From Harmothoe impar (Eukaryota; Annelida; Polychaeta; Phyllodocida; Polynoidae): 64,000 nt of DNA. Each line of letters opens with the position of its first letter. The stretch's first letter is position 1. The notes below the pieces were generated by a model that made no database searches, was not told where the DNA came from, and was given only the letters and a program-made list of their open reading frames with translations. Shown here one piece after another: positions 6,606-56,641 of the stretch. A program made the translations under genes and the position numbers. The stretch spans positions 18,018,784-18,082,783 of the forward strand of contig OX381706.1 in NCBI GenBank assembly GCA_947462335.1. Reading direction: 5' to 3'.

Positions 6606-6609
6606 CCAC

Positions 6610-10066: not shown

Positions 10067-10119
<53 letters not shown>

Positions 10120-10150: not shown

Positions 10151-10350
10151 TATATACCGCTCTGTGCCCACTGGGAAGGACAGGTTGATGGGTGAGACCA
10201 GTATATAGGTTTTGGGAGATAAGGGCAACTTATAATTAAACTTGATGCTCATTTTAAGAACAGGTTAGTGGGTGAGACCAGTATATAGGTTTTGGGACAT
10301 AAGGGCTACATGAACTTGAGAACAGATTGACAGATGAGACCAGTATGATA

Positions 10351-19770: not shown

Positions 19771-19787
19771 ATCTTCAGACAGACTCT

Positions 19788-22349
19788 ATGGACAATAACC
19801 TTTCCATACTCAATCATTTGGCATTAAATTCTAATACTCAGTACCTCAATAGTCCTTCGTTATCAATTAACATAGATAGCAACAATAGTGATGATATAAA
19901 CACGTATAATTCTATCCAGAATACTACTCATATCCAATCACCAATCCTGACACCGGAGACTCCCAGAGGAGATCCCCAGAGTCAGGACCCCCCGGCACCC
20001 CAAGAAAGGGATGCCGGGAACACACACCCCACCACCAGCTGCAAAAGCAAACTGGTTGTAAATCTCTCTAACCACAACCTAACGGACGTGGAGGTAAGCC
20101 TTTTAGAAAAAGGCTTAAAATTCTGTCCAACCAGGTTCCGCAGCGAACCCGGTGACCTTAAAAGAGAATTGGATGCGTTCCACAAGAAATTGAGGACCAT
20201 CCAATTCTTTTCTAAAAATCAGAATTCGGCTGAGGTGACTGAACAGGAACGAACTGATCAGCCCACCACCGCCCCCTACTCCAAGACGGAGGATTTGAAA
20301 AAATTCAAACCCCCGTCCAAATGGAACCCCCCACCGGGATCCGCAAATTTGGAGACTTTCATTAGTCATAATGAAATAGGTCTAGCGAAGAGTGAAACGG
20401 TCATCAACCGGAAACAAAATGTGACGGCTGAAGAACGCAGGGCCCTAAAAAGCCTCAGCAAAAACAACGACCTCACTATCAAACCCGCTGACAAAGGGGG
20501 AGCTCTTGTAGTGATGAACACTTCAGACTACGTAGAGGAGGCCTTCAGACAGCTAAACGATGGGAACACCTACCAGCGTCTGAAAAATGACCCCACCAAG
20601 GAGTCACAAGAAGAGATAAACAAGGTGATTCTGGAGATGCTGGCTCAGAATGAGATCAGCAAAGAAGTAGCCGATCTACTGATGTGTGAAAAATCTCGCA
20701 CACCACAGATATACTTCCTCCCAAAAATCCACAAGAACATCCTCCCCCCCCCGGGACGACCTATCGTTAGTGCGAATGGTTGCCCGACGGAGAAGATTTC
20801 CGCCTTTGTGGATTGCTTTATGAAGCCCATAGTCCGAGATGTAAAATCTTACGTCAGGGACTCCACGGATTTCATAAACAAGATAGAGAGCAATGCTGCA
20901 CTACCGGTAGGCACCATCATTGGCACTCTTGATGTTAGTTCCCTATACACCAACATCCCCCATGATGAGGGGATCGAAAGTGTAAGGAAACACTTGGTAC
21001 TGAACAGAGAAAGCTTCGAGAAACCTCGAAATGACTCTCTAATACACCTTTTGGAACTGGTCCTCAAAAGGAACAACTTCCAATTCAATGGCACCAACTT
21101 CCTACAAATAGGAGGAACTGCCATGGGGACAAGGCTGGCCCCATCCTACGCAAACCTATTCATGGCATCCCTTGAAGAAAACCTCTTGGAACACCACGAA
21201 TACAAACCCTCAACGTGGGTACGATATATTGACGATATATTCTTCACCTGGTCACACGGTGTAGATCGCCTGAAAGATTGGCTAGAATATCTCAATAATG
21301 CCCACGAGACCATTAAATTTACCTCAGAACACTCGAGCACTGAGATAAATTTCCTGGACACCACAGTAAAATTCGGCACAGATCGCAAGATGTACACCGA
21401 CTTATACTGCAAACCCACCGACTCACACGGATACCTTCTGTATGACTCGGCACATCCGCCATCAAGCAAGCGGAGCTTACCCTACAGTCAGTTTCTCAGA
21501 ATAATGAGAATCTGCACAAGGGAAGCAGATTTCTTGAAACATGTCAGGATCAAGAAACAACACTTTCGTGAACGGAAATACCCCGAAGCGATCCTGGATG
21601 AGGCACTCCGGAAATGCCTCACCAACAACCGGAAAGACCTCCTTCAACCAAAGGTGAAGGAGGACACCCCGGATACAAACACAGAAAAGATCTACATGAT
21701 CAACACCTACCGTCCCAATGATCACACCTTGGTGAAAATGATCGACGAAAATTGGGACATCCTTGGAAGATCAACATCAACCAAGGAAATTTGGGACCGA
21801 AAAGTAGTTAAAGGGTACCGCAGGCCAAAAAACCTGCGGGACCACCTGGTGAGAGCCAGAACCAACTACAACCCATTCTCGACCGAGAAAGTAGGTTCCA
21901 AATGTTCCAATGTCTGCAGAAGAAAGAACTGCAGATATTGCCCGATGCTAGACACATCGGGGAGGATCCAAAAAGGAACCTCCAAACTGAGCTTTGAGAC
22001 AAAAACAAATGTCACGTGCAATAGCTCGAATCTGATCTACTGCTTAGAATGCACCAAGTGCAACATCAAGTACGTAGGTCAGACCAAAAACAAGGTCAAA
22101 AAACGACTTTACAGCCACATGTACTTCACAAAGAAGGGCAAGGTGGTCAACGATGTCCAACGTCACTTCCTAAAAGAAGGCCATGACATAGAAAGGGACA
22201 TGAAGGTCTACATACTGGATTTCATACACGAATATCCACACAGTAAGAAGGCCAAGAGTCTGCGACTCAAGATCGAATTCAATTGGATTCATCGACTTGG
22301 TACTACGGCCCCATACGGCCTGAACACCATGGACAGTGTATGCGGTTAG
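19788..22349 (+). CDS. Penelope-like element ORF2: reverse transcriptase with GIY-YIG endonuclease
   Basis: 853 residues from the first ATG in frame; the frame is open upstream to before 19767, overlapping ORF1, so -1 frameshifting or reinitiation is possible. It makes cDNA at a nicked target. N-terminal PLE motifs include KPADKGGALVVM and FLPKIHK..GRPIVS. RT motif A is DVSSLYTNIPHDEG (about 382), motif B GTAMGTRLAP (about 443) and the catalytic motif is YIDD (480-483). A cysteine cluster (CSNVCRRKNCRYC, from about 706) precedes the GIY-YIG domain, which starts YCLECTKCNIKYVGQTK (about 751) and ends with the family's QRHF and FNWIHRL-like segments. All catalytic motifs look intact. Penelope-like elements of this type use the GIY-YIG nuclease to nick the target; the copy appears competent. 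Confidence 0.95.
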   Translation: MDNNLSILNHLALNSNTQYLNSPSLSINIDSNNSDDINTYNSIQNTTHIQSPILTPETPRGDPQSQDPPAPQERDAGNTHPTTSCKSKLVVNLSNHNLTDVEVSLLEKGLKFCPTRFRSEPGDLKRELDAFHKKLRTIQFFSKNQNSAEVTEQERTDQPTTAPYSKTEDLKKFKPPSKWNPPPGSANLETFISHNEIGLAKSETVINRKQNVTAEERRALKSLSKNNDLTIKPADKGGALVVMNTSDYVEEAFRQLNDGNTYQRLKNDPTKESQEEINKVILEMLAQNEISKEVADLLMCEKSRTPQIYFLPKIHKNILPPPGRPIVSANGCPTEKISAFVDCFMKPIVRDVKSYVRDSTDFINKIESNAALPVGTIIGTLDVSSLYTNIPHDEGIESVRKHLVLNRESFEKPRNDSLIHLLELVLKRNNFQFNGTNFLQIGGTAMGTRLAPSYANLFMASLEENLLEHHEYKPSTWVRYIDDIFFTWSHGVDRLKDWLEYLNNAHETIKFTSEHSSTEINFLDTTVKFGTDRKMYTDLYCKPTDSHGYLLYDSAHPPSSKRSLPYSQFLRIMRICTREADFLKHVRIKKQHFRERKYPEAILDEALRKCLTNNRKDLLQPKVKEDTPDTNTEKIYMINTYRPNDHTLVKMIDENWDILGRSTSTKEIWDRKVVKGYRRPKNLRDHLVRARTNYNPFSTEKVGSKCSNVCRRKNCRYCPMLDTSGRIQKGTSKLSFETKTNVTCNSSNLIYCLECTKCNIKYVGQTKNKVKKRLYSHMYFTKKGKVVNDVQRHFLKEGHDIERDMKVYILDFIHEYPHSKKAKSLRLKIEFNWIHRLGTTAPYGLNTMDSVCG

Positions 22350-24260: not shown

Positions 24261-24776
24261 AGCAATGTTTAATGAGTTTCGGGTTTTCAAAATTTTTACT
24301 TGGCTCAATTTCCATTACAAATAACGTCTCTCAAAAGAGGCCAAAGGTAGAAGTATGTACATGAACACAGACATACAATAAGTATTGAACTCCAGCCATA
24401 CAATACACATTAAACACAGACAAATAAATCAGGCAGCGAAGATGAGCGCATAAAATAGTGGTGTACGGTAGGACAAGAAAATACAATTCGATATCATTTA
24501 CATTTGAACATCATTTCAACATCAGGTACAACTTTCAATTCAGCTGGGAATGTTAGAACCAAGGACAATTAACAGAATTTAATACATCAGCCTTAAAGCA
24601 TTCTTCTATGGACATGACAAGACAGAGCTACTGGATGATACACTAATCTAATTCCTTCATTCCGCCCCCCCCCCCCTCATCCCCCCCATTTTTACGATTT
24701 TCGTACACCGAAACTGTTTATATATCGTATTACTGCGCTCACTCGCTACTTGTTAGTGATTACAATTGAACCAAAA
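24261..24776 (+). other. Leader region of the 24.8-kb LINE
   Basis: Noncoding sequence between a MITE and the LINE start codon, with a C homopolymer near 24665. It probably contains the LINE 5' UTR; the exact 5' end cannot be set because no target duplication was found. Confidence 0.35.
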
Positions 24777-27647
24777 ATGAACCCTGACACAATCCGTATA
24801 GCGGACGAGATAAATAAGCTGAAAGGCTTGACCCTGTGCGGTCTGAATTGCCGCAGTCTCCAGCCGAAAAAATTGGAAATTGCCCTTTTACTGAGCCCAT
24901 TCAACATTTTGTGTGCTTGCGAGTCGTGGTTGGATGACCGTGCAGGAGATGAACTGATATACATTAAAGGTAAGAGAACATTCAGACTTGATCGTGAGGC
25001 TGATAAAGGAGGAGGATTAGTCACATATATTGATGAAGCCTATGGGGCATGTAGCATCATTCTCTATGAGCATTGTAGAATGGAACCAGATATTGAGCTA
25101 CTCACTATCAGTATTAACAGGGATAAACACAAAGCAATGATTATCATGAACACTTATAGGCCTCCTAAGGGCAATGTGACCTTATTCTTGGATACATTAA
25201 ATGACATTGTCACTATATTACAGGAAAAGGACGAAGAGGTTTGGATTATAGGAGACCTGAACATCAACATGAGGGAGAGAGACTTACCACCTGGCAGAGA
25301 ATTGATTGACTTTTGCCGAGAAAATGGCCTACGTCAGAAAATCAGCCAAGTGACCCGTCCAAACCCAGAAGGAGGTACAATAATTGACAACATCTTGACA
25401 AACTGCAATATTGTCCAGAGCTCAGGTACCCTGGACATCTTACTGAGTGACCACTACCCCATCTATGCTGAGCGGAAAAAGGATAGGGAAATCAAAGTCA
25501 CCATAACCAGAGAGGGAAGGTCATACCGGTATTACCATATTGACGACCTTTATGAACACCTGACGTCATATGACTGGACTGACTTCTTTGAAAGTGGTGA
25601 CCCCGAAACCCAGTGGAATATTCTGCTATCTAGAATATTGGAATACCTAGATGAAGCATGCCCAATAAGGATCATGACACTCAAACGCGTTCCAGAAAAG
25701 CATGTAAGCAGACACACCATAGAACACATAAATGACAGACAGGAATGCCTCAAGAGATACAGACAAACTGATGATTATGGTGAGATGATGGAAGCTAAAC
25801 GTCTCTCACACCTCATTAGAAGACAACTCAAAGCCTCATTATCTGAGGGAGTCACTGACACCCTAACAGCAGCTAAAGGGGACCACCGGCGCTTCTGGCG
25901 GGAATTAAACAAACTACTGAACCCTACTGCCAAGATGACCCAGATCAACCTGAAGGATGAGGATGGGAATAGCATCGAGAGTGATAAGGTGTCTACCTTT
26001 GTCAACAACTACTTTGCAACCATAGGCCAAAAACTGTATGACTGCAATGGAGACGATAACAACACAGATAGGATTGACATCAGAGACATCCCTATGACTG
26101 ACGACGGGACTGTGCTAGACATAGACACCCTGATAACCCTAGACAAGGTTGAAAAGCTGATTGCCAAAATAAGCAGGGATAAATCGTCAGGACTTGAAGA
26201 AGTGAACAGCTCTGTGCTAAAAGACACACTGACCCTACTGCCTGAACACCTCATGGCAATGTTCAAAAACTCCTTCAAACACAGCCTATTTCCGAAATCC
26301 TGGGCCTTAGGTAACTTAGTCCCAATCCCCAAGAAGGGTGACTTATCACTAATCAAAAACTGGAGACCGATCACGCTGCTACCGTTACCAGGCAAGATGC
26401 TGGAGAAGATCGCCCATGAATATATCAGCAAGCACCTAGAAGAAAACCAACTGCTGTCCAAACACCAGTTTGGTTTCAGAGCCGGGCTTAGCACTGGAGA
26501 TGCAGTGTTCTCAGTTTTAAAAGACCTATATGAAGATCGTGACGACAACAAAATCACCATGGCCTGCTTCATCGATTTCACAAAGGCCTTTGACAGTGTA
26601 GACCATCCCACACTTGTCACCAAAATCAACTGCCTGAAAATACCCATCAACATCAAATATTGGTTGGTAGATTACCTGGCTGACAGACGACACAGCACAA
26701 AAGCAAATGACATCAGATCACCAGCAGAAAGCGTTCATTTTGGAGTACCCCAGGGGTCCACCCTGGGGCCTTTGCTATTTGTTCTGTTCATTGACGACCT
26801 ATGCAGCACAGTTGAACACTGTAAAACGGTAATGTATGCGGACGATGTCATAGTCTACGTGAGTAACCAAGACCCATTAGAAGCAACCAGACTGCTTCAA
26901 CTTGACATCAATCATATACAATCCTGGTGTGTTGACAACCACATGACAGTCAACACTGACAAAAGCTCAATCATGACCTTTGGTACAAAAGGCAAACTGA
27001 AACAGTGTCCAGAACCGACCATTAAAATGGGTAACCAAACTCTACCTGTAGTCACCACATATCCATACCTAGGTGTGGACCTAGACGGTCCCCTTACAGC
27101 GACCCCATTCGTCAATAAGACCAAGAAAAACATGGGCAACAGGCTGTACAAGCTAAAGGAAATGAGAGGGTACCTACCCCAAGATGTATGCTTGACGATA
27201 TATAAAACTATGATCATGCCTGTACCTGATTACTGCAGTTTCTACCTAGGCAGCGCCCACCAGCAAGAGCTGACAAAAATACAACGCCTCCAAAACCGGG
27301 GAATCAGAATTTGCACAAGAACAGCCATCAGAGGCACAAGTGTTGCTGACCTGCATGACACCAACAATATACCAATACTTGAAACAAGACGGAAACAGCA
27401 ACTCATTCAACACATGTGGAAACTTGCAAAAAAAGGACACGCTACCCAAAATGCCCGTGGAAGGACAAGAGGAGATTTGAAACTCAAATTCCAAGAGAGA
27501 ATTCCAAAATCATCCTTCTACCAAAAGAGCCCCTACTATAGGGGCGTGAGCCTATGGAATGAACTCGACCATGAAGATCAGAAACTTAAGAAGAAAGAAG
27601 ACTTCAAAAGAAAAGTGAGAGAGAAGTGGAATGACAAACCACCATGA
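24777..27647 (+). CDS. Non-LTR retrotransposon (LINE) endonuclease-reverse transcriptase
   Basis: 956 residues from the first ATG of the frame; the open frame begins slightly upstream without an ATG. It nicks target DNA and copies the element RNA there. An APE-type endonuclease fills about residues 18-230 with GLNCRSL, CESWL, GDLNIN and LSDHYPI. The reverse transcriptase lies at about 520-800: PIPKKGD, NWRPITLLP, HQFGFRAG, FIDFTKAFDSVDH, GVPQGSTLGP and catalytic YADD (687-690), followed by the YLGV segment. The C-terminal tail ends in YYRGVSLWNEL, typical of the Jockey/CR1/L2 branch. All catalytic residues look intact and there is no stop or frameshift. A separate ORF1 is not visible upstream, so the copy may be 5'-truncated or a single-ORF element. 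Exact clade not resolved. Confidence 0.93.
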   Translation: MNPDTIRIADEINKLKGLTLCGLNCRSLQPKKLEIALLLSPFNILCACESWLDDRAGDELIYIKGKRTFRLDREADKGGGLVTYIDEAYGACSIILYEHCRMEPDIELLTISINRDKHKAMIIMNTYRPPKGNVTLFLDTLNDIVTILQEKDEEVWIIGDLNINMRERDLPPGRELIDFCRENGLRQKISQVTRPNPEGGTIIDNILTNCNIVQSSGTLDILLSDHYPIYAERKKDREIKVTITREGRSYRYYHIDDLYEHLTSYDWTDFFESGDPETQWNILLSRILEYLDEACPIRIMTLKRVPEKHVSRHTIEHINDRQECLKRYRQTDDYGEMMEAKRLSHLIRRQLKASLSEGVTDTLTAAKGDHRRFWRELNKLLNPTAKMTQINLKDEDGNSIESDKVSTFVNNYFATIGQKLYDCNGDDNNTDRIDIRDIPMTDDGTVLDIDTLITLDKVEKLIAKISRDKSSGLEEVNSSVLKDTLTLLPEHLMAMFKNSFKHSLFPKSWALGNLVPIPKKGDLSLIKNWRPITLLPLPGKMLEKIAHEYISKHLEENQLLSKHQFGFRAGLSTGDAVFSVLKDLYEDRDDNKITMACFIDFTKAFDSVDHPTLVTKINCLKIPINIKYWLVDYLADRRHSTKANDIRSPAESVHFGVPQGSTLGPLLFVLFIDDLCSTVEHCKTVMYADDVIVYVSNQDPLEATRLLQLDINHIQSWCVDNHMTVNTDKSSIMTFGTKGKLKQCPEPTIKMGNQTLPVVTTYPYLGVDLDGPLTATPFVNKTKKNMGNRLYKLKEMRGYLPQDVCLTIYKTMIMPVPDYCSFYLGSAHQQELTKIQRLQNRGIRICTRTAIRGTSVADLHDTNNIPILETRRKQQLIQHMWKLAKKGHATQNARGRTRGDLKLKFQERIPKSSFYQKSPYYRGVSLWNELDHEDQKLKKKEDFKRKVREKWNDKPP

Positions 27648-31781: not shown

Positions 31782-32890
31782 AATACTTCAATACTTCAAT
31801 ACAATCTTCATAACCAACTGCATAGTTCAAGTTTAAATATAGAACATTGTTACATGGAATCACGTAACATACAATCTAGGTCATATTACATGGAATCACG
31901 TAGAGCATAATATCCACTACAAGCAAATATACCTGCACTCAAATATTCATATAGACACACAATAACATATGACATATCACTTACTATTCACTCAGAAATC
32001 ATTCAATTACTTTGTATTTTACTTGTGAACAACGCGTGAGTTGCTAGATTTTGAGTCTCGGCTGTCAGCTTATTCCACAACAGACTACCTCTGTAAAGAG
32101 GACTCTTTTTATCCTTAGGTCTTTGTAGTTTGACCTTCCTTTTATCATTACTCCTCAAGACCCGTATATGAGCTACCAGATTTTCAGCTCGCCGTGTATG
32201 CTTATACATTAGACTTACAAGGTGCTGATTCCTTCTGGTGATTAATTTATCACATTTACAGGTTCTATGTAACTCGGCCCTACTAATTTGTCTGATATCC
32301 CAAATACCCAATGTTGTGCGCAGACAGTGATTCTGCAGAGTCTGTAGCTCAGACACACTACTCTCAATCTTGAGCGCATTCCAGAGCAAAATTGCAGTAA
32401 TCAAACACAGGGAGCACCATTTGTTTGTAGACAGTCAATTAGAGTTCATTGCCCATTACCTTTTTGGTTCGTCTCATGTGTCCTAACTTCCCTTTCACTG
32501 AATTATGTACCCTTTCACAGAGCGGCTCAAAACTACATGTTTAATCTACTAGTACACCTAGATAATTGAATACCTTTACATTTTTAAAGGTTTTGCCTTT
32601 TAGAGTAAGACAGTAGTTGTTGTAGTTGATACCGTCTCCTTCAGGATGACACCACAGGACATGAGATTTGTCTGAATTAACTTTGAGTCGATATACATCA
32701 CACCATTCAGCAGTGCGCATTAGGTCATCCTGCAACAGCAATTTGGCCATCTCAGGATCCCTGTTCGCCACACACACTGCTAAATCATCTGCATACATGT
32801 AATGAGCACAATTTAACAGATTCTTCACAATTCCATTTATATATATGTTGAACAATACAGGTCCGAATGAAGCTGCATAAACCATGACAT
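31782..32890 (-). pseudogene. 5'-truncated, frameshifted LINE copy
   Basis: Reverse-strand remnant of an APE-class LINE. The 5'-most surviving part (32541-32885) encodes the second half of the RT domain: FGPVLFNIYING, the catalytic MYADDLA and a YLGV segment. A later frame (32003-32404) encodes the C-terminal tail, ending YRGSLLWNKL, related to but distinct from both full-length LINEs in the window. The two frames do not join without a frameshift around 32404-32541. The 3' end carries a short tandem tail, about three AATACTTC units (31782-31803) read on the + strand, as CR1/L2-type LINEs often have. Dead on arrival by truncation. Confidence 0.85.
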
Positions 32891-33191: not shown

Positions 33192-33910
33192 CCCCCTTTC
33201 CACCAGCAACTAGCTCAGCCAAATCTCATGTCCGAGATTAGGGTACAAGCAGGGTGTGAGTATTGCGAGTGGGTTGTACCTGGGCATTCCATATGTCACC
33301 TGTCCCTCATAAAGTAGTGGTTAGCACGGTGGATTTATGATGCAGAGTCCTAAGCTCAAATCCCTGTCAAGTCATATCTTGGTGACCATACCATGAATTT
33401 ACATTCTTATATATCAAATATATTTTGCTTTGATATAAGTGAGTAACAACCTTGAAATGATATCAAGGAAATAGCAATAGTCTTTGAACAAATTTTTTAT
33501 TCCTATTTCTTCAAAGGAACCATGTGTATATAAATAAGAAAATGTATTGGTTGTTAATTGTATGGTGACAAGATATGGTCTGGGAGGGATTTGAGCTTAG
33601 GTCCTCTACATCATGAATCCACCATGCTAACCACTACCCAGCTAACAAAAAAACGTTATTTTACGTCAAAATAAAGTTTTAAAAGTTTGTACAACGTTAT
33701 GCCATAGTAAGGAGCCTTAGAGAAACGTAATATAACGTTATATAACGTTATAAAATGTTGTATAACGTTTTTTGTTTACTGGGTATTCTATGAGGGACAG
33801 GTGACATAAGGAATGCCCAGGTACAACCCACTCACAATACTCACACCCTGTTTGTTCCCTAATCTCAGACCTGAGATTTGGCAGAGCTGGTTGCTGGAGG
33901 TTAGACTGGT
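33192..33910. mobile_element. Large inverted repeat with tRNA-like promoter words
   Basis: The left arm (about 33192-33375) and right arm (about 33571-33910) are inverted copies. Each contains CAGGGTGTGAGTATTG, GTGGGTTGTACCTGGGCATT and the tRNA-like pair AGTGGTTAGCA(C/T)GGTGGA and GCTCAAATCCCT (box A-like and box B-like). It may be two SINE copies inserted head to head or a foldback. The right arm is split by the MITE at 33637-33783; the left arm preserves the uninterrupted sequence. Confidence 0.75.
33637..33783. mobile_element. AACGTT MITE, copy 2 (147 bp, TA duplication)
   Basis: Ends CCCAGCTAACAAAAAAACG and CGTTTTTTGTTTACTGGG, flanked by TA on both sides (33635-33636, 33784-33785). The matching empty site is in the left arm of the surrounding inverted repeat near 33306 (TAAAGTAGTGGTTAG), which confirms the boundaries. 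Confidence 0.85.
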
Positions 33911-34473: not shown

Positions 34474-34744
34474 GGCTGTGTCTCACGAACTTGGGCCAAT
34501 GTGTTTGTCTATGACCGGGTGCCGTCTATGACCAGCTATCTAAAAAAGTTGTTTGGAGGGATAAACTTTTTTTTAAATTCTTTTTTTACAATTTTTATTT
34601 ATAAATTTTATTTTTTTTAATTTAAAAAAATCTTTTTTATTCCTCCAAACACCTTTTTTAGATAGCCGGTCATAGACGGCACCCGGTCATAGACGGCACC
34701 CGGTCATAGACAAACACATTGGCCAAAGTTCATGAGACACAGCC
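34474..34744. mobile_element. Foldback element with GGCTGTGTCTCA ends, copy 2
   Basis: GGCTGTGTCTCACGAACTT at the left and AAGTTCATGAGACACAGCC at the right. Inside each arm are two or three units of GGTCATAGACGGCACC, inverted between arms, and an AT-rich core. Same termini and plan as 1910-2262 but a different internal unit. Confidence 0.8.
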
Positions 34745-35309: not shown

Positions 35310-35542
35310 CAGGGAAAAGAAACAGCGTCAAAAGGGAGTCCAGATTGCCTCCAGAATGACTCCCCTCTGTAGGAAAGTCCAGGTCCCCTGGCAGGCCTAT
35401 AGGAGTCACCTCGGGGAGTCACGCGAGTCACATAGCTCCCTGACTCACCTACGGGAGTCAAATAAGGACCAGGGCTTCCCTACAGAGGAGAGTCATTCTG
35501 GAGGCAACCTGGACTCCCTTTTGACGCTGTTTCTTTTCTCTG
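35310..35542. mobile_element. GAGTC hairpin element, subtype 2, copy 1
   Basis: AAAAGAAACAGCGTCAAAAG at the left and its inverse CTTTTGACGCTGTTTC at the right, then GGGAGTCCAGATTGCCTCCA pairing with its near-inverse. Arms full of GAGTCA words. Same subtype as 51214-51522. Confidence 0.85.
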
Positions 35543-37847: not shown

Positions 37848-38658
37848 AGATGCCAAATAAAAGTCTGCTGGTGGGATCATTTTGAGCTTCTTGTCCGTTG
37901 ATTTGGAATCCTTCCTTGGTGGTCTTTCAATAGGGGTTGGGCGGTAGGTAACCCTATGGGAACTGGAACTGGAGCTGCACGGCTTTGGTTCATACTCCTC
38001 AGTATGGACCTTGTGGACTGTAGATTTTACCTGTGGTCTGCTATTGATTTCCTCGCTAGCAGTCGGGGTGGATGATCTGGAAGTGGAGTGGCTGGAGGCC
38101 GCAGTTGTTAGAGCTTTTTGAAGGGGCGACTGGAGATTTTGGCGAAACTGATTTCTCTGGTTCGTCATCATCGTCATCAGATATGGCCAAATCTAGTAGA
38201 AATTGGTTGTCATTGTCAGGCATGTCAGGTAACTTGCCAGTGACACTGTTGTTGGAGGGGATGGGTGATGGGCTGCGACTTTTGTTGGTGGGTTTGACAG
38301 CAGGGGCCTGTTTCTTAACAAGTGTTTCTTAGACCGTTATATTCATGTCTTAATAGATCGGAGATAATATAACAAGAGGTAACACAAAGTAGCCTGTTGC
38401 AAAAGCCGAAAAAATTAATATTTCAAATTTTGTTATTTTAATAGAAATATTAGTATAACAACTTATGAAACAGAATTTCCAATTTTTCGGCTGTTGGTTA
38501 CCTTCAAAGTAGTTATATAAGGACATTTCTAGATATATTACCATTCAAAATATTAAGCTATATTAGTGCTTCCGATATACTGAGAAAGACTAGAGACTAG
38601 GACTAGAAATACCAGCACCTATGTAGCATATCACTCGTCTGAAGCCCCGTTCTCAAAC

Positions 38659-39555
38659 ATGTTTGCATGTGAAATTGAGGAAAATGGAATTGTCTTCCAA
38701 TCAGTGGAACAAGCAGTAGCACACGATAAAGCGCAGTTTGCTGGCGCCATGGAAAAAGCTCAATCTATAAGAGATACACACTGTCCTTACAGAGCTAAGT
38801 CGCTGGCTAAAGGTATTATATGCCCGGACTGGGAGGCTAGGGCTGAACTCTCAGTAGAAAAGTATAACCTGCTCAAATATGAACAGCACATCTGGCTGGC
38901 GGAATTACTAGCTAAAAGCGAGAATAAAAGGCTACTGGAGGTGACCCCTGACCGGAAATGGGGATGTAATGCCAGCATAGGGTCAAAAAAACTAAAAGAC
39001 GGTTCATTTAACGGTGGTAACCTAGGAGGAGTAATATTGGAGAGGGTAAGATGTGAAGTGAGACGATCAAGAGGACTCAGCCCTATAAGGGCACAACCCC
39101 CACCCACCCCTCCTGTTAATAACAACAACACACTAAGGCCTGCAGCGGCACAGACCCCCCTACACTCTCACAGCGCAGTGGCTGATACCTCAGGTAGTGG
39201 ATCCTCACCGGTGCTTGGACAGCGTGCGGTACAGAACGGAGCAGCCACCAACGCCACCACCACCACCACTACTCTGGCTACCTACATGCGCCCTACCACG
39301 TCACCAATACAGAGCGCGCCCACACTTCAACCTCAGCAGGCTGGAGTCCACATGTACCAACCACCACCACCACAAGAACAGAGAAAGCGTCCAGAACGCG
39401 AGGGTTCAATTGTGAAGTATAAAACGCCACCTCAGCAGAATGTAAGCCTCCAACACTCAAACATTGGTAATGGGCAGGCACATACAAGCTATAGGCTCTT
39501 CACCCCGCCGAGTCTCAGAGGGAAATATCAAAACCAGCAAACACACAATGTATAA
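38659..39555 (+). CDS. NADAR-domain protein, first ORF of the LINE
   Basis: 298 residues from the first ATG. Residues 1-132 match the NADAR (YbiA-like) fold signature in order: VFQSVEQAVAHDKAQF (12-27, with E17-Q18 and K24), AKSLAKG (46-52), W58, a KYNLLKYEQHIWLAELL helix (68-84), the RKWG box (99-102) and GGNLGGVILERVR (119-131). NADAR proteins act on ADP-ribose-type adducts, and some members remove ADP-ribose from guanine bases. The residual PFSNMF motif that normally opens the domain is encoded upstream of the ATG (38641-38664), in an open frame starting at 38584. Residues 140-298 are Pro/Thr/Asn/Gln-rich and probably disordered. Function in retrotransposition is unknown; nucleic-acid de-ADP-ribosylation or RNA binding are possibilities. 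Confidence 0.85.
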   Translation: MFACEIEENGIVFQSVEQAVAHDKAQFAGAMEKAQSIRDTHCPYRAKSLAKGIICPDWEARAELSVEKYNLLKYEQHIWLAELLAKSENKRLLEVTPDRKWGCNASIGSKKLKDGSFNGGNLGGVILERVRCEVRRSRGLSPIRAQPPPTPPVNNNNTLRPAAAQTPLHSHSAVADTSGSGSSPVLGQRAVQNGAATNATTTTTTLATYMRPTTSPIQSAPTLQPQQAGVHMYQPPPPQEQRKRPEREGSIVKYKTPPQQNVSLQHSNIGNGQAHTSYRLFTPPSLRGKYQNQQTHNV

Positions 39556-39671
39556 ATACTATGTAAATTGATTTTATCATGTTTTACTTATTGTATATTT
39601 TCTTTAAAAAAAATTTAAATAGGGTACTATGTCACTTATACCCCCTTCTTTCTCTGTGTTATACCTACAGC

Positions 39672-40325
39672 ATGAATGTCGTCATAATGGCCGATAGCCG
39701 CGGTGCAGGACTGGAGGAATTTCTCCCTAACTGGTGTCCTGAAGGGATTATATATCAAGTTTTTCCCATCCCCAGCCAAGGGTTAATCAAGCTTGCGAAG
39801 AAAGCCACAGTAATCGCCAGGACCTGCCCTCCAGACCTAATTTTTATATTTGGGGGAGTGTGTGATATCACCTATAGAAATCCTGTTAGCAAGTATACAG
39901 GCCTTAGATTTGATAATCCTATGGTATGTAGAGATAACTATATCTCCACCCTAGAAACGGCCCATAGCATCATGCGGAATCATCCTCTCACACGTACAGC
40001 GAAAATTGTGTATAGTCCGGTATGTGGGGTCGAACTAAACAGGTATAATGAGATCACATCTGCTACAAAACACCCCCAGCAAAGAAGCCTTAATAAATCA
40101 ATGGAATTAATAAATTCATTTATTAATGACTTCACAGAGGGATCAGCTCTCCGAACACCATGGGTAGCTAGCCATTGTCATGCTGGCAAAGGCAGAGGGC
40201 GGGTCAGCCATACGTATCATGCCCTTTGGGACGGCTGCCACTTTGAATCGAATGTACTGGAAATGATCGGCGCCGAAATCCACGAAGCCATGAAACTAAA
40301 TATAAACATTGCGCCCCGCTATTAG
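39672..40325 (+). CDS. SGNH/GDSL-esterase-like ORF of the LINE
   Basis: 217 residues from an ATG at 39672; the frame is open further upstream but that part is AT-rich, so this ATG is preferred. Block I is VVIMADSRGAG with the putative nucleophile Ser9. Block III reads GVCD (62-65) where the family usually has GxND, so the oxyanion Asn is replaced by Cys. Block V is WDGCHFE, giving Asp187 and His190. Esterase-like ORF1 proteins are known in CR1-branch LINEs, where they are thought to help ribonucleoprotein or membrane association. Just upstream, 39643-39670 is a pyrimidine-rich tract ending CTACAG, a good splice acceptor, hinting that this ORF could be reached by splicing from the first ORF. 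Separated from the EN-RT ORF by 573 bp. Confidence 0.75.
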   Translation: MNVVIMADSRGAGLEEFLPNWCPEGIIYQVFPIPSQGLIKLAKKATVIARTCPPDLIFIFGGVCDITYRNPVSKYTGLRFDNPMVCRDNYISTLETAHSIMRNHPLTRTAKIVYSPVCGVELNRYNEITSATKHPQQRSLNKSMELINSFINDFTEGSALRTPWVASHCHAGKGRGRVSHTYHALWDGCHFESNVLEMIGAEIHEAMKLNINIAPRY

Positions 40326-40898
40326 GTATAGTGAGGTCAATCCAGGCCACTGTGTGATGTAATGAAACAGCTGACTGACCAACTGACCCACTACCAGTGA
40401 ACCCTGTATATATGGATCAGCCGTTCAAATGTATGGATATGTATTATCTTATTGACATTAAATATATAATATAATACACTTACATATTTGAATATGTTGC
40501 TATATATTTGCATAAGTCAACGTTGATATCATGTTATGGCATTGTTATACCAGAGCGCATTATATATTATATATCGATGTTGTCAAACGGTAGCACTCTG
40601 ATGATTATTGACAATGTCTTCTCACATACTAACAGCTCCTGTGTTTGTGATACGACACTTTTGAGAGCAAGCTTTAAATTAGAAAGATCAGACAGGTCAT
40701 GAATTAAACTAACAATGATATTATGTATTAGATAGCGATCCATTACTTATTTATATTATATATGGAGCCCGAAACCTCCTCTAAAAATGACGACACACAC
40801 TTGTCACCTAGTAACATACGATCACCCAATGATGAATTCATCACCATTAACCCATCATCATATCATTTCACTCATCATTCAAAAACACAAAGGGAGTC
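40326..40898 (+). other. Inter-ORF region of the LINE
   Basis: AT-rich spacer between the SGNH-like and EN-RT ORFs. No domain-bearing frame. It may hold signals for translation of the downstream ORF; none is recognisable. Confidence 0.4.
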
Positions 40899-43769
40899 AT
40901 GTCTTGTGTGGTTGGAATGGCAGTTGACTTTGAGAACATGGCCCCTTTAGTGGGTCTTAAGCTGGTATGCCATAATGTGAGGAGCCTTAATGATGAGACC
41001 TTCACTGAATGGAATAAATTGTTAGCTAAGTTTGATATAGGTATTGTTATAGAGTCATGGCTAACTCCTGACATTGATTCTATTTTGTCTCGTGACATTA
41101 ATGGTTACAATCAGCTAAGGCTTGATAGGAAACCTTTTGTGGATAAGGTTGGTGGTGGTATTGTTATTTATGTAAGGGATAATTTAGGCCTGCAACTTGA
41201 TAATGATAACTCTATAATCTGTGAGGACTATGAAATCCTCTCAGCGGATATCCTTTTGCATAAAAAGAAATATAAGGTATTATCCTTTTATAACCCTAAG
41301 GGCAAGCCAAAACCCATCACTGACCATATCAATAATGTAATAAGTAATGCAATGGGAAACAATATTTTTGTTATTGCAGGTGATATGAACATAGACCTTC
41401 TTAATGGTAAACGCTGTGCGGAGATCACCAAAATGTGTGACGATAATAATTTACAGCAAATAATAAGTACTCCTACACGTGAGGTGGGTGTCTCTTCCAA
41501 ATTAATTGATCATATTTATACCAATAGCGAAATCATAAATAATTTTGGCACCATTAATCTAAATTATAGTGATCATTATCCAATATTTATTACCTTTAAA
41601 CATAAACATATCAAAATTGAAAAGAAAAGAATTAGAGCCAGATCATATAAAAACTTTAATAAGGAAGATTTTGTAAACAAATATAAAAATGCTGACTGGT
41701 CAGAATTTAACGAGTCACTTCACCCCGACAAGCTGTGGTTACTATTATTGAAACATGTTCATACTGCTCTTGATAGCTCGGCGCCCCTACGCAACATGAC
41801 GATACCAGTGCACACTGAAGAATGGTTAACTCCACATGTATTAGACCTAATGAGGCAAAGGGATAAAATGTTCAATAGATATCATAGAACCAAATTAAAT
41901 ATACATGAAGATATGGCCAAAGCCAAGCGAAATGAGGTAGAAATGGCTTCCTTCTTCAGTAAAAAAAGGGTAATTAATATTTTAATTGATAAAAAGCACA
42001 AAGATCCCAAAGCTTTCTGGGCAGCAATTGAAAAACTGCTTCCCTCAAAGGGTAAATCCACCCTAATTAAGTTGATTGATAATAATACTCATGTAGAGAT
42101 TGCCACCAATGAGGTTGCAAACTATATTAATAATTATTTTTCACAGATAGGGGAGAAGCTTGCGCTGCAACACCCCCCTGTTGTGATACCTCCTATGGAA
42201 AGCGATAAGCCAGAGGACACTGAGCTATTGGATGTCCCCTTTAGTAATAAGGAAATATTAAAATATGTGAAGAAAATTGATTGCACTAAATCATCTAATG
42301 TTAAGGATGTGAAAGCTTTTATTTTTAAGATAGCTTTTACCTGTGCTCCTGAAAGGCTTACGTTCATCTTTAATGAATGTAGGAGGAGAAACTGTTTCCC
42401 TAATTTGTGGAAAATTGCTACAGTTATGCCTATTCCCAAAAAAGGAAATTGCAAGCTGGTTACAAATCTTAGGCCTATAAGTTTGTTACCATTGCCTGGT
42501 AAACTGTTTGAAAAGGCAATGGCGGGTAGGTTAAGAACCTTTCTGCAGGATAAAAATATAATGCATTCTGCACAACATGGTTTTAGGCCGGGTAAATCTA
42601 CTTTAACAGGAATTTCAACTTTTTTAAACGATATATATGAAGATATTGATAATAATTTAGAAGTCTACAGCCTTTATTTGGATTATTCCAAGGCTTTTGA
42701 TACAGTCTCACACCCATTATTGATAAATAAATTAAAAAATATTGGACTTACGCAAAATTCCTGCAATTGGTTCTTGAACTACCTGACCAGTAGAACGCAA
42801 AGAGTACTGGCCAATAACTGTTTTTCACAGGTGAAAGCTGTTAAATATGGAGTCCCTCAGGGATCCATTTTGGGTCCTATTCTCTTTACACTTTACATAA
42901 ATAATTTACCAAATTGTTCTGACTTATGCAAAACAGTACTTTATGCTGATGATGCTGCTATGTCAGTTAATAATATAGAGGACCTTCAAACTCTTGTTCC
43001 TATAGTCAGTGCCTGGTGTAAAAGTAATCTCCTCACTATAAATAAAGACAAAACCAAATGGATGATTTTCGGGCAGAAGCCTCCAGTACAAAATTTACCC
43101 AATAATATTTTACAGTTAGATGGGCAAAATTTAGAAAGGGTAGATGACTTTAATTATTTGGGTGTAACAATAGATGATAATCTAACTTTCGAGAAACAAA
43201 GAAAAAGTACATTAAAAAATACTAACTTTAGGGTAATTCAATTAGCAAGAATTAGAAAATATCTAGATATTCATGGAGGGCTTAAACTATTCAAAAGTAA
43301 GGTTATTCCAATTTTCGATTATGCTGATATTATCTGGGATAATCGTAAGGGAATTTTTGAAAGGGAGTTACAGAACATTCAAAATAAAGCAATGAGGATA
43401 ATTTATAAGGTCAAGTTGGAAGAAAATCCCCTCTATTCAACTGTACAGATGCAAAAGATGAGTGGATGTATCCCCTTGACCCACAGGAGGGATGTTCATC
43501 TACTCACTTATGCATATGATATTAGGCATATGCCCCGTTATATGGATGTTAGGCCTAGAAATACCAGGCTTGCTAATGGGTTACGATATACCCAAATAAA
43601 CTCAAGACATCCAACGGTACAACATAGTTTCCATAGAGAGGCTATACGTAGATGGAATAAGCTAAAGACTGCCTATACATTGTTAGAGAAAAAATCCTTA
43701 TTCAAAGAAAAAGTGAAAAGGGATTATCCTCACTGCTATGTAAATGACCAGTATATGGTCATGATTTAG
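40899..43769 (+). CDS. LINE endonuclease-reverse transcriptase (third ORF)
   Basis: 956 residues. The APE endonuclease occupies about residues 20-235 with CHNVRSL, IESWLTP, AGDMNIDL, LIDHIYTN and YSDHYPIF. Reverse transcriptase motifs: MPIPKKG, LRPISLLPLPGK, QHGFRPGKST, YLDYSKAFDTVSH, GVPQGSILGP and catalytic YADD (682-685), then NYLGVTID. The tail carries RWNKL..FKEKVK. All key residues are present and the frame is unbroken. It is clearly of the Jockey/CR1/L2 branch and is only distantly similar to the 24.8-kb LINE. Its sequence is markedly more AT-rich than the Penelope ORFs and the other LINE. A 62-codon frame at 40762-40950 overlaps its start in another frame and is not supported. Confidence 0.95.
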   Translation: MSCVVGMAVDFENMAPLVGLKLVCHNVRSLNDETFTEWNKLLAKFDIGIVIESWLTPDIDSILSRDINGYNQLRLDRKPFVDKVGGGIVIYVRDNLGLQLDNDNSIICEDYEILSADILLHKKKYKVLSFYNPKGKPKPITDHINNVISNAMGNNIFVIAGDMNIDLLNGKRCAEITKMCDDNNLQQIISTPTREVGVSSKLIDHIYTNSEIINNFGTINLNYSDHYPIFITFKHKHIKIEKKRIRARSYKNFNKEDFVNKYKNADWSEFNESLHPDKLWLLLLKHVHTALDSSAPLRNMTIPVHTEEWLTPHVLDLMRQRDKMFNRYHRTKLNIHEDMAKAKRNEVEMASFFSKKRVINILIDKKHKDPKAFWAAIEKLLPSKGKSTLIKLIDNNTHVEIATNEVANYINNYFSQIGEKLALQHPPVVIPPMESDKPEDTELLDVPFSNKEILKYVKKIDCTKSSNVKDVKAFIFKIAFTCAPERLTFIFNECRRRNCFPNLWKIATVMPIPKKGNCKLVTNLRPISLLPLPGKLFEKAMAGRLRTFLQDKNIMHSAQHGFRPGKSTLTGISTFLNDIYEDIDNNLEVYSLYLDYSKAFDTVSHPLLINKLKNIGLTQNSCNWFLNYLTSRTQRVLANNCFSQVKAVKYGVPQGSILGPILFTLYINNLPNCSDLCKTVLYADDAAMSVNNIEDLQTLVPIVSAWCKSNLLTINKDKTKWMIFGQKPPVQNLPNNILQLDGQNLERVDDFNYLGVTIDDNLTFEKQRKSTLKNTNFRVIQLARIRKYLDIHGGLKLFKSKVIPIFDYADIIWDNRKGIFERELQNIQNKAMRIIYKVKLEENPLYSTVQMQKMSGCIPLTHRRDVHLLTYAYDIRHMPRYMDVRPRNTRLANGLRYTQINSRHPTVQHSFHREAIRRWNKLKTAYTLLEKKSLFKEKVKRDYPHCYVNDQYMVMI

Positions 43770-44102
43770 TTTTTTTCTTAGCGCATACCCAACAACTATA
43801 TATATATTGGGTGAAGCTCTTTTCACCACTTAGGACATGAATTTTATTTGACACTGTATTATGCACATTTTCCTGGTCTATTGATTTGTTGTTACCTGTA
43901 ACTCATCCTCATCTCATCCCTCATCAAACGACAACAAAGATTTATTATCTCTTTGGGTTTTTATTGTCAAATTGTGATATAAAGAGACGCCATTACACAA
44001 TTAGTTAGTTAGTAAAGTATAATCATAAGAAGGCCTGGACAGCATAACGGCATTGCCGAGTCCAGAGGCAGATTATGTATTTACATAATAACTGTACACC
44101 TT

Positions 44103-44128
44103 AATAAAAACACTTTAAAAAAAAAAAA
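44103..44128 (+). terminator. Polyadenylation signal and A-tail of the LINE
   Basis: AATAAA at 44103-44108 followed within 10 bp by a run of 12 A (44117-44128), as expected for a retrotransposed 3' end. Confidence 0.8.
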
Positions 44129-44296
44129 GAGTATAGTCTGGAATCCCCGTTAGACAGAGGGGGTTCCCCAGTGCAGGAATAGCTGCAGGCGCAGAACGGT
44201 GCTGCCATCTAGGTGTATAGCAGCAGAAATTCTCCCTGATGTTGGTAGCGCTATCTCTCCTCCATAGTACTAACTTACAGATCAGTCAGTAAGGCC

Positions 44297-50632: not shown

Positions 50633-51213
50633 TTAATAACACTCTGTAACTAGGACATAGAACCATACCATATTCATGATGTGGTTATAAATCGGGGGGG
50701 GGGGTGAAATTGGGCCAATCGATTTACATTATACTACCAGAACACAAGTTACATTATACTACCAGAACACAAATTTCTTAAACAGTATGTATCACAAGCC
50801 GTCGAAAACTGCTTAATTTGAGCAGGCGAGACATGGTCTGGCCTTTTGATGAGGCTGGTTAGGGTGTGGCTCTAAACCAACGGTTAATTGTGCCATGCGT
50901 GCTCATTTCCGACATTTGTCTCTTTGTTTAAATATAATTGTTAAAGAATTAGGACCACATGGCTCACTGAATGGCTCTCTGTGGTGGACCTTGCCTCTAG
51001 AGAGATTGTGGAATGTGTCTCAAATTTCTCAATGCACTTGGACTTCAGAAATGAGGGAAAGACAGGGGAACACTTGGGTGGGGCACCTGTCAGAGCCACA
51101 GTGGAACTGATTATTGTTTTCAGATAGTGCCCTGATCTAGTGGGTCCCACATTCTTCAGCTTGTGATACAGACTGTAAATATGATATACTCAATGCCTAT
51201 ATATAAAGCTATA
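50633..51213. other. Noncoding stretch
   Basis: A G-run near 50695 and a 23-bp direct repeat (TTACATTATACTACCAGAAC at about 50724 and 50750). The open frame at 50895-51110 has no recognised motif. Confidence 0.4.
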
Positions 51214-51522
51214 CACATTGAAAAGAAGCAACGTCAAAAGGGAGTCCAGGTTGCCCCCAGAAGGACTGCCCTCTCTTGGGGAGCCCATGCAGGACGCCTA
51301 AGGGAGCCTAGGTGACTCTCTGGCTGATGTAAGGGAGTCACCCCGGGGAGTCATATAGCTATCTGGGTCATATGACTCCCCAAGGTGAACTCCCCGGGGT
51401 GACTCCCTTACATCAGCCAGAGAGTCACCTAGGCTCCCTTAGGCGACCTGGGCTCCCCTAGAGAGGGCAGTCATTCTGGAGGCAACCTGGACTCCCTTTT
51501 GACGCTGTTTCTTTTCTCTGTG
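51214..51522. mobile_element. GAGTC hairpin element, subtype 2, copy 2
   Basis: Almost the entire element is palindromic: AAGGGAGTCCAGGTTGCC at the left pairs with GGCAACCTGGACTCCCTT at the right, and GACTCTCTGGCTGATGTAAG pairs with its exact inverse. It would give a near-perfect hairpin RNA of about 150 bp. Confidence 0.9.
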
Positions 51523-53177
51523 TCGAAAGAGAGTATCAGTCCCCTGAACAATGTTCAGGGATGGACAGGGTGCTAAGGAAATAGTGCTGGCATGCAATTA
51601 CACTATAGGCCTACATAGTCCTCAGCTGTTCTACACATGAATTATTGTAGATACCACATACTAAACTTTGTTGTGAGTTGTTATCAATTTGTGCTGCTTC
51701 GCAACCAACAAAATATATGACTGAATGCAGACAGTGCGGCCATGGTTTGTCTTGTACTCATCTCCAGACCATATACTTCCTGTAATGGCGACCATGGACA
51801 TTATCTGTAGGAGGAGGAACGCCTATTTGACACACCTATCAGTACATGCTTTTATATAGAAGTGCATGCTAAAGTGAGTAGCCAAACAGAGATCTAGAGT
51901 TTGGCTGAGGGGCACTGACAAGATAGAAAAGCATGCATTTATATATATGGGGGTGCAGAGGTGTCCCCCCTTCAGCTCAGAATGTCGCCGAAATTAAGGG
52001 CCCCAAGTGACAAAGTGACACGTTTTTGGACCATTTATGCTAACGCTAAATATTTCCAAAAGTCGCCAGGTTGCTTATATTATTGTACCAGGTCGTCTGG
52101 AAAACAGCCCAGGTTGCCAGGTCGCTTTTGACCCATCTGCAGCCACGTATATACACATCGCTGTGGGTATCAATATTCAATTTTGTCGACATTCTATGAG
52201 TTGAGTTGTCTGATTTGCGAGGCCCTTAGTATATAGTATTTGGTTTGGTTGGACAGGGTTCTATGCTGTGTTTTTCTTTTTTAATCCTTGAAGAAGGCAT
52301 ACATCTACTTGAGTTTTTACCATGATCTTATCACTGGGCTGTATCCCGCTGACCCGTGAGATTGTACTTGATATCAACTACGCCCCAGATATCATCAAAT
52401 AGTAAGCTAATTGGCATTGTATACCCCATTTTCTAAACACCTAGTTCTCCTTATGGGCGTGCTTCCGACTGAGTGCCATAAACAGACGTTGCCATCAACA
52501 GACGCTGCCTCCTTCTGCGCATGCCTCGCGACAACGCATGCGCCGTGGCTGCCTGCCTGAGAGGCCTCGAATTAAATCAATTGGATTTCCTAGTACCCAG
52601 CACCGATTAGTTTCCTGGAAATTGTGAATAGGCGGCCGGGGAGATGGAAGGAGAGGGGGGGGGATACAGGCGGACAAACAAGGTCTGCAAAAGCAGACGA
52701 CATTCACAGCTATCTGCCTGTCCCAAAAACGGATGGCAATATGCCGCAGGGACGCCCGAATAATGTTACTTTACCACGTCCTGGTTACAACTAAATAAAA
52801 TTGTCGACATTAAGCCTTTACTCGGAAACACAGTGATCTTAGAACATGTTAATAGAGGACATTGACCGACCGGTAAATCATGTTAGCGGTACGCCCAAAT
52901 CGCTCAACGAGAATGCTGCTTAATTATTGAGATTTTTAAAAATAGGAATATATATTCTGTAGGTATTAAAAAGGTAAATCGGCTCTGAGAAGGCCAATTT
53001 CGTATACTAAAACGCCATTTTCAGCTCTGCAAAGGCCAATATCGGATATCAAAAGGCCAATTTTGGCACCGATATTAGCTATGAGAAGCCTAATATTGAT
53101 AGAAAGAGTCAAAGATTAAAACTAATTTAATGATTGTTTCACCCGGATGATGTTGCATTATATTACAATGTCGTAAT
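51523..53177. other. Noncoding stretch; GC-rich patch at 52495-52560
   Basis: Mostly unrecognised. 51955-52140 has GTCGCC/CAGGTCGC words related to other GTCGCC repeats. Around 52517-52550 the words CTGCGCATGC and GCATGCGCCG resemble NRF-1 binding sites of CpG-type promoters, but no gene follows on either strand. 52985-53070 has three AAGGCCAAT words. Confidence 0.35.
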
Positions 53178-55075: not shown

Positions 55076-55577
55076 AAGGTCAAATCCCACAACGTGAATG
55101 AGGGCTGAAAAATGTAGTTTATTGTGAAATCCTGATCACTTAGCCAATATTGGTTGGATATGTCTGCTAAAACAAGCCCAATATTGGTTATAACCCTTGT
55201 CTAAGTCTTGTGATTATGATAAATAAGATATCAAAACATTTAGATATTTTGCTCTGTTTATGTTCAAATATGTTGCTTATTAGAATATGCCAATGATTTG
55301 GTTTATACAGGGGGGACACTCCAGATATCTTTAGGCGAGTTGAGAGGGAACAATCAAGACAAATCATACCATGAAGTAACTCCCCCCAACTAGATCAATT
55401 AACCAGTACTGTAGGCAACACTTGCTTGCTTATTATTGACCACAGTGGGATTTGGAGAGGCATAAGATCATAGGAGAAGTGTTGCAATTCACAATATTGG
55501 CAACAGTTGCCCCTTGTTTTTATGTCAATAATCAACACTTTCTCACCCATTTTTCGCGTTGTGGGATTTGACCTATA
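55076..55577. mobile_element. MITE family A, full-length copy (inverted vs copy 1)
   Basis: AAGGTCAAATCCCACAACGTG at the left, TTCGCGTTGTGGGATTTGAC at the right. It aligns over its whole ~500 bp with the reverse of 1375-1874. Confidence 0.85.
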
Positions 55578-55642
55578 CTGCATAGTAGAGGTCATCTTCC
55601 ATTAGCCGATTAATCGGATGTAAGCATAGGTCCTATGTATTA

Positions 55643-56641
55643 GCAAAATCCCACAACGCGAAAAACAGGTAGGAAAGTGTTGCAAATTAGTCATCTGTCA
55701 GCAGGGAGCTGCTGCCGATTTGGTAAATCACAACACTTCTACTGCATACATGGGATCCTCCAAATCCCACTACAGCCGATTTGGACAGGAAAAGTGTTGT
55801 GATTTGGTGCATGTTGGACATGGTGTAGGGTTTAAAATCGCAACAGAAAGGACTTACATAATTATTTGAATAAGGCACCCCTGGTCGTAACAATTTATAT
55901 ATAGATTCTGCCAGTATAGCTAAGCACTATTAATTGCAGAGCAAAACCCCTTATCATATGGAGCATGTAGGGTTTGGGTAATGATTAATCAATGACACAA
56001 CCATTGAGATTTAGCAAGAAACCTTGACACATTCCAATAAACAACATTTTAGGCTTGGAAAACATAGTTTATTATGAAATCCTGATCACTCAGCCGATTC
56101 TGAGGCCTAGTTTGGCTAAGACAGGCCCAAATCGGTGAGAAAGTGTTGCCTATCCCTTATGATTTGGGAAATCACAAGGATCAAAAAAGTTTGATATCTT
56201 TTCCCCAAAGGTGTAGAAAATGTTGCTTATTGGAATTTTTCAAGGTTTCTTGCTAAATCGCCATGCTTGTGCCCCTGTTTAACCCTATACCGTGTCCAAC
56301 ATGGCCCAAATCGCAATACTTTTCCTGTCCAAATCGGCTATAGTGGGATTTGGAGGTTCCCATGTATGGAGTAGAAGTTTTGTGATTTACAAAATCGGCA
56401 GCAGCTCCCTGCTGACAGAAGGCTCATTCGCAACACTTTCCCACCCATTTTTCGCGTTGTGGGATTTGACCTTATCTAACTTTTTTAATCCTTGTGATTT
56501 CCCAAATCACAAGATATAGCCAACACTTTCTTGACTACTAGTATTTTGCCCAGTCTTAGCCAATAAAGACCCCAAAATCGGCTATACTTCCAATTAGCAA
56601 CATTTTCTGACTCTCTCTTGCATTGTGGGATTTGACCTATA
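55643..56641. mobile_element. Mosaic of family A MITE pieces
   Basis: Contains several family ends (CCCACAACGCGAAA at about 55650, CGCGTTGTGGGATTTGACC at about 56453, TTGTGGGATTTGACCTAT at about 56624). The interior is a related but distinct one (GGCAGCAGCTCCCTGCTGAC at about 56396 and its inverse at 55699-55716). Likely nested or recombined copies. Confidence 0.7.

What the first reader, a model, noticed from the sequence alone, without database searches (positions are those of the whole stretch)
38584..44129. LINE that carries a NADAR domain next to an SGNH-like ORF and EN-RT
Three co-oriented, intact ORFs share one A-tailed unit: NADAR (38659-39555), SGNH-esterase-like (39672-40325) and APE endonuclease/RT (40899-43769). 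NADAR motifs (EQxxxxxKA, WG box, GGNLGGVILERVR) are visible directly. NADAR proteins are linked to ADP-ribose chemistry, including removal of ADP-ribose from guanine bases. A retrotransposon carrying one could counter host ADP-ribosylation of its nucleic acid (a PARP/DarT-like defence) or use the fold to bind RNA. I know of esterase ORF1s in CR1-type LINEs but cannot recall a described NADAR-LINE; the functional idea is inference.
Basis: partly seen in the sequence, partly recalled or inferred. Interest (0 to 1): 0.92.

Follow-up and report, generated by a model that had tools for sequence, protein, structure and literature searches.

The report
LINE carrying an ADP-ribose enzyme domain
A LINE-type jumping gene appears to carry, next to its copying machinery, a NADAR domain of the kind that strips ADP-ribose from guanine, plus an esterase-like gene; NADAR was already noted in another type of LINE from oyster, so this looks like a new variant whose role is untested.

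Summary
The three ORFs are real. ORF1 matches Pfam NADAR (62.8 bits; cut-off 35.1) and keeps the key ADP-ribose residues of the YbiA family (E42, K49, E119, W126). ORF3 is an APE endonuclease plus reverse transcriptase whose motifs look Jockey/CR1-like, not L1-like. ORF2 has SGNH-like blocks, with Cys for the block III Asn, but no profile search confirms it. AATAAA and A12 close the unit.

No in-frame ATG lies there, so this copy is probably 5'-truncated and ORF1 is not intact. No target-site duplication was found. NADAR in retrotransposons is not unreported: a 2025 paper notes it in ORF1 of oyster Tx1 LINEs and in brown-algal Gypsy Pol.

Whether the three ORFs recur as one unit could not be tested: the own-genome search did not complete, and the host is unidentified. 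The close relatives found, one each for NADAR and ORF2, sit in separate short contigs. Best reading: a Jockey-group LINE with a NADAR ORF1 bearing a basic low-complexity tail, an SGNH-like ORF2 and EN-RT. Removal of ADP-ribose from element RNA or cDNA is inference.

The parts
38584..39555 (+). ORF1 open frame: NADAR domain (residues 19-159 of the frame), then a P/T/Q/N-rich basic tail (residues 166-323, pI 10.7); no in-frame ATG before 38659
38599..38658 (+).
   Evidence: no target-site duplication there
39646..39670 (+). splice-acceptor-like pyrimidine-rich tract and CAG, ending one base before the ORF2 ATG (noticed after the fact)
   Evidence: 17 of 22 pyrimidines, the highest of 161 YAG sites in the unit; 31 AG-free sites score at least as high among 1889 YAG sites on the + strand of the window
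39672..40325 (+). ORF2: SGNH-hydrolase-like protein, 217 aa (ADSRG, GGVCD, DGCHF)
   Evidence: motifs only
40899..43769 (+). ORF3: APE-type endonuclease plus reverse transcriptase, 956 aa
44103..44108 (+). AATAAA ahead of the tail
44117..44128 (+). poly(A) tail (A12), 3' end of the unit

Best explanation
A copy, probably slightly 5'-truncated, of a non-LTR retrotransposon of the Jockey/CR1 group. Its ORF1 protein is a YbiA-family NADAR domain joined to a basic low-complexity tail; a second ORF codes for an SGNH-like protein; the third codes for the endonuclease and reverse transcriptase of target-primed reverse transcription. Working model, inferred: the tail binds the element RNA, as ORF1 proteins generally do, and brings the NADAR domain onto the ribonucleoprotein, where it hydrolyses ADP-ribose linked to guanine in element RNA or cDNA, or a related adduct made by host transferases; the SGNH-like protein acts on lipids or membranes, as proposed for other retroelement esterases. 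Shown here: the ORFs, the domain identity of ORF1 and ORF3, conservation of active-site residues, the A-tail. Inferred: one mobile unit, the clade, catalysis, substrate, benefit to the element.
For: NADAR: Pfam 62.8 bits; phrog_1017 81.9 bits; TIGR02464 59.9 bits, below its cut-off of 73.7; tblastn matches in 285 of 50,697 phage records and 31 of 72,556 plasmid records at E up to 1, listed rows 27.5-31.3% identical. Fifteen columns are invariant in the window, P0001 and six bacterial or phage NADARs; E42, K49, E119 and W126 fall, by eye, on E43, K50, E125 and W133 of the P. nicotianae enzyme (PMC11543638 section 12; chain alignment). P0001 is 87% identical over the domain while the tail diverges. 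EN-RT: RVT_1 137.8 bits; GFRPGKST, LDYSKAFD, GVPQGSILGP, YADD, IESW, GDMNID and SDHYP present, with different letters from L1 at the matching places. No A run of 9 or more lies between the ORFs; A12 after ORF3 is the only one. ORF2 relatives P0002 and P0003 share the blocks that they cover.
Against: One copy only. G+C falls from 49% (ORF1) and 45% (ORF2) to 35% (ORF3), as in a chimera. An A8 run stands 51 bases after the ORF1 stop. No target-site duplication. The other LINE in the window (24759-27644) has no NADAR or SGNH match near it, though it may be truncated. R79 and R93 of the reference enzyme are not cleanly kept (Lys; Arg shifted by one) and one residue is missing before D123 (by eye). 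In the reference work E88A, the E42 equivalent, changed catalysis in vitro only little, and NADARs outside DarT operons did not rescue efficiently from DarT1 (PMC11125620, passages). No function was tested.
Confidence: 0.5

Rival explanations
1. The NADAR fold serves only as a binding or structural ORF1 module (RNA or nucleotide binding, RNP assembly), without useful hydrolase activity.
For: ORF1 proteins use varied folds thought to bind and chaperone the transcript (PMC4120745, passages); the basic low-complexity tail fits RNA binding; some ADP-ribose contacts have drifted (by eye).
Against: E42, K49, E119 and W126 are kept in the window and in P0001.
Confidence: 0.25
2. Chance juxtaposition: an EN-RT LINE truncated between ORF2 and ORF3 lies beside an unrelated NADAR/SGNH-bearing sequence.
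For: G+C differs between the ORFs; a 573-base gap without a long ORF lies between ORF2 and ORF3; no second copy is known; no target-site duplication marks the ends.
Against: All three ORFs are uninterrupted, on one strand and followed by one A12 tail preceded by AATAAA. NADAR and ORF2 each have one close relative, both in short contigs of the source labelled ena (P0001 735 bases, P0002 794 bases), as dispersed repeats might give; this shows no linkage.
Confidence: 0.18
3. The NADAR domain is active, but on soluble ADP-ribose derivatives or other N-glycosides, not on the element's nucleic acid.
For: Proposed for many viral NADARs (PMC9503650, passages); E. coli YbiA is annotated as an N-glycosidase and the best NCBIfam model is a riboflavin-intermediate N-glycosidase, below cut-off.
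Against: For eukaryotic RNA viruses the same paper favours removal of macromolecular ADP-ribose; the NADAR/YbiA proteins tested in PMC11125620 hydrolysed guanosine-ADP-ribose in vitro (passages).
Confidence: 0.2

Closest known systems
Tx1 LINEs of Crassostrea gigas with NADAR-like ORF1 (Repbase, noted in PMC12477816, passages)
   Same: A LINE whose ORF1 carries what appears to be a YbiA-family NADAR domain
   Different: The RT here lacks the L1-type motifs (that Tx1 shares them is recalled), and an SGNH-like ORF lies between ORF1 and EN-RT. The oyster sequences were not at hand, so whether they have such an ORF, and how close their NADAR is, was not compared.
[quoted passage not shown]
   Same: Retrotransposon-borne YbiA-family NADAR
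   Different: LTR elements of brown algae; the domain is part of Pol
Type IV (esterase) ORF1 of CR1, L2 and RTEX LINEs, e.g. ZfL2-1 (PMC4120745, PMC3905857, passages)
   Same: SGNH-like protein encoded upstream of EN-RT
   Different: Here a separate second ORF, with Cys for the block III Asn, behind a NADAR ORF1; membership in SGNH unproven
NADAR domains in polyproteins of invertebrate RNA viruses (PMC9503650, passages)
   Same: RNA-based parasite with NADAR beside its polymerase
   Different: Viruses; no sequence comparison was made

Membership tests
NADAR superfamily (PF08719), YbiA family | Pfam model above gathering score | tested here: met
   62.8 bits against 35.1
NADAR superfamily (PF08719), YbiA family | ADP-ribose residues equivalent to E43, K50 and W133 | tested here: met
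   E42, K49, W126 invariant in the 8 aligned sequences; mapping by eye
NADAR superfamily (PF08719), YbiA family | Glu at the E125 position (Asp in BC4488 family, His in phage NADARs) | tested here: met
   E119 invariant in the 8 aligned sequences
NADAR superfamily (PF08719), YbiA family | hydrolysis of guanine-linked ADP-ribose | not testable with these tools
   needs purified protein
LINE, Jockey/CR1 group | APE endonuclease plus RT in one ORF with catalytic motifs | tested here: met
LINE, Jockey/CR1 group | RT groups with Jockey-superfamily clades in a phylogeny | not tested
   motifs only; no reference RT set at hand
LINE, Jockey/CR1 group | dispersed copies with a common 3' end | not tested
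   The genome search unanswered
LINE, Jockey/CR1 group | target-site duplication (not universal among LINEs, recalled) | tested here: inconclusive
   none found: best boundary score 5, reached by 77 of 400 random places; best wider match 11 bases with 1 mismatch, 12 bases beyond the tail and inside ORF1; the 5' end is uncertain
Tx1 clade of LINEs | L1/Tx1-type RT motifs | tested here: not met
   chain 8c8j_A (human L1, recalled) has gfipg / daekafd / rqgcplspllf where the window has gfrpg / dyskafd / vpqgsilgpilf; that Tx1 shares the L1 state is recalled
SGNH hydrolase superfamily | profile match to an SGNH family | tested here: not met
   none in Pfam, NCBIfam, PHROGs or PDB; best chance-level hits were others, e.g. 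histone H2B at E 0.067; hhalign of A2 to E. coli TesA probability 0.7%, aligning DGCHF with DGIHP
SGNH hydrolase superfamily | blocks with Ser, Gly, Asn and Asp-x-x-His | tested here: inconclusive
   ADSRG, GGVCD, DGCHF present; Asn is Cys in all 3 aligned sequences. A block pattern matched 0 of 200,000 shuffles, but was written after seeing the sequence

The most novel reading that the evidence does not exclude
[quoted passage not shown] NADAR was captured independently of the oyster Tx1 LINEs or passed between LINE clades.
Probability: 0.2. Interest if true: 0.88.

Novelty: new variant of a known kind. Interest (0 to 1): 0.6.

Why it matters
The roles of NADARs outside DarT operons, in animals too, are called unclear in PMC11125620 (passages). 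A LINE that carries one with its key residues kept would tie nucleic-acid ADP-ribosylation to the control of retrotransposons and offer a direct test: mobility with and without the catalytic residues.

Tried and rejected
Tx1 membership: rejected on RT motifs. Target-site duplication: none found. Profile proof of SGNH: failed; tblastn of P0003 gave 2 plasmid and 2 phage records, all at E of 4 or more; a TesA search of plasmids (57 records) was meant for a profile that I did not build. PDB sequence search with ORF1 or A1 found no NADAR chain. The search for related loci found no relative in viral contigs or prokaryote contigs; these collections may leave out the window's own genome. Rfam and ARAGORN on the window: nothing. 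Host not identified. Protein searches: NADAR 1 of 1909 and 1 of 416 candidates (both P0001), ORF2 2 of 66; the EN-RT ORF was not searched there. No DNA of P0001-P0003, so no selection test. Literature: of the papers listed (30 of 104; 15 of 15; 9 of 9; 20 of 25; 2 of 2; 6 of 6; 12 of 18; 14 of 15; 2 of 2), the Ectocarpus paper PMC12477816 is the only one in which I saw NADAR linked to transposable elements; I opened eight papers, in part: PMC12477816, PMC11125620, PMC11543638, PMC4120745, PMC11203168, PMC5408684, PMC9503650, PMC3905857. The library holds open-licence papers only.

Full report
What is there. Three plus-strand ORFs lie in about 5.5 kb that ends in AATAAA and A12. Their open runs of 323, 252 and 972 codons compare with at most 171 in 300 Markov simulations of the same stretch. 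ORF3 matches RVT_1 with 137.8 bits and Exo_endo_phos_2 with 36.4 bits. ORF2 matches no SGNH family in the libraries tried.

ORF1. I aligned the NADAR stretch with P0001, E. coli YbiA and five NADARs from tblastn hits (H1, H4, H18, H24, H25, chosen by me for variety from 25 listed rows; 285 phage and 31 plasmid records matched). Fifteen columns are invariant in the eight: S24, N25, E42, K49, P68, W83, K98, L117, E119, W126, G127, G144, N146, G149, L152. By eye, from the YbiA match to chain 8bau_A and the residue list of PMC11543638 section 12, E42, K49, W83, E119 and W126 correspond to E43, K50, W89, E125 and W133; that the chain is the P. nicotianae protein, numbered with an offset of two, is my inference. 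Lys stands for R79, the Arg for R93 is shifted by one, Y84 has no clear counterpart, and one residue is missing before D123. Glu at E119 is the YbiA-family state. In the reference work the K50 and E125 equivalents matter for hydrolysis, while alanine at the E43 equivalent had a minor effect in vitro. The tail (residues 166-323) has pI 10.7 and is 68% P/T/Q/N/S/G/A.

The start. S24 and N25 lie just before the ATG at 38659 (M26). Upstream the frame is open to a stop at 38581-38583 without an ATG. P0001, from a 735-base contig, has 25 residues ahead of the match; the match begins at 38599, and the best other window match to its first 45 residues has E 0.51 and lies elsewhere. The simplest reading is a 5'-truncated copy; alternatively P0001's extra residues are its own flank, or a weak non-ATG start is used. 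No target-site duplication was found: the best boundary match scores 5, reached by 77 of 400 random places, and the best wider match, 11 bases with one mismatch, lies inside ORF1.

ORF2. Two relatives passed among 66 candidates: P0002, 69% identical over 75% of the query, and P0003, 26% over 98%. Window and P0003 share ADSRG; all three share GG[VI]CD and DG.H (P0002 begins at block III). Cys replaces Asn in all three. A block pattern matched 0 of 200,000 shuffles but was written after seeing the sequence. hhalign to TesA gave probability 0.7%. SGNH is likely in my judgement but unproven.

ORF3. RT motifs GFRPGKST, LDYSKAFD, GVPQGSILGP and YADD, and endonuclease motifs IESW, GDMNID and SDHYP, are present. 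Chain 8c8j_A (human L1 by recall) has other letters at these RT places. That Tx1 goes with L1, and that the window's motifs are those of the Jockey/CR1 group, is recalled; no tree was built. A second LINE at 24759-27644 is 32% identical; tblastn of NADAR and SGNH against the window finds only themselves, apart from a chance-level SGNH match near 53.9 kb, E 0.45.

One unit or not. For: strand, spacing, open frames without interruption, one A12 tail. Against or open: G+C of 49%, 45% and 35%, an A8 run after ORF1, one copy, no duplication. The own-genome search was unanswered twelve times. Scans of viral contigs and prokaryote contigs gave no relative; the window's own genome may be left out of these.

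What is known. PMC12477816 (passages) reports NADAR domains in Ectocarpus Gypsy Pol and, as divergent hits, in ORF1 of several oyster Tx1 LINEs, and suggests processing of RNA intermediates. PMC4120745 (passages) and PMC3905857 (passages) describe LINE ORF1 types including esterases; neither is among the 15 papers that hold the phrase NADAR domain. PMC11203168 on gastropod LINEs (passages) holds neither esterase nor SGNH. PMC5408684 (passages) shows esterase ORFs in several retroelement types. PMC9503650 (passages) reports NADAR in invertebrate RNA viruses and argues that there it removes host-made ADP-ribose. PMC11125620 (passages) calls the roles of NADARs outside DarT operons unclear and finds guanosine-ADP-ribose hydrolysis in the proteins tested, but not efficient rescue from DarT1 by NADARs of other contexts. 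ZAP, a PARP-family protein by recall, restricts human retrotransposition (PMC4441479, title and start of abstract in a search listing).

Verdict. A new variant of a known kind: NADAR in a LINE that looks to be of another group than the one reported, with an SGNH-like ORF between. The mechanism is inference.

Noticed in passing
window 39646-39672: Splice-acceptor-like tract ending one base before the ORF2 ATG, the best of 161 YAG sites in the unit, noticed after the fact. ORF2 might be expressed by cis- or trans-splicing.
   Followed up: partly
window 24759-27644: A second, related EN-RT LINE ORF (962 codons, 32% identical), with no ORF1 recognised.
   Followed up: partly
window 32388-32867 (-): Fragment of a third related RT (30% identity, E 3e-15).
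   Followed up: no
window 18262-22349: Penelope-like element (name by recall): a 502-aa ORF without a Pfam match, then an 860-aa ORF with RVT_1 and GIY-YIG matches.
   Followed up: partly
window 9112-10163: Repeat array seen in the self-comparison, with open frames running through it.
   Followed up: no
window 1914-2259, 6366-6838, 7714-7999, 12383-12679, 14402-14631, 33314-33637, 34474-34744, 35310-35542, 51213-51523, 55444-55771: Stretches that match their own reverse complement, like fold-back or MITE-type elements (a list cut at 60 rows).
   Followed up: no
window 38584-43769: G+C falls from 49% to 45% to 35% across the three ORFs.
   Followed up: no
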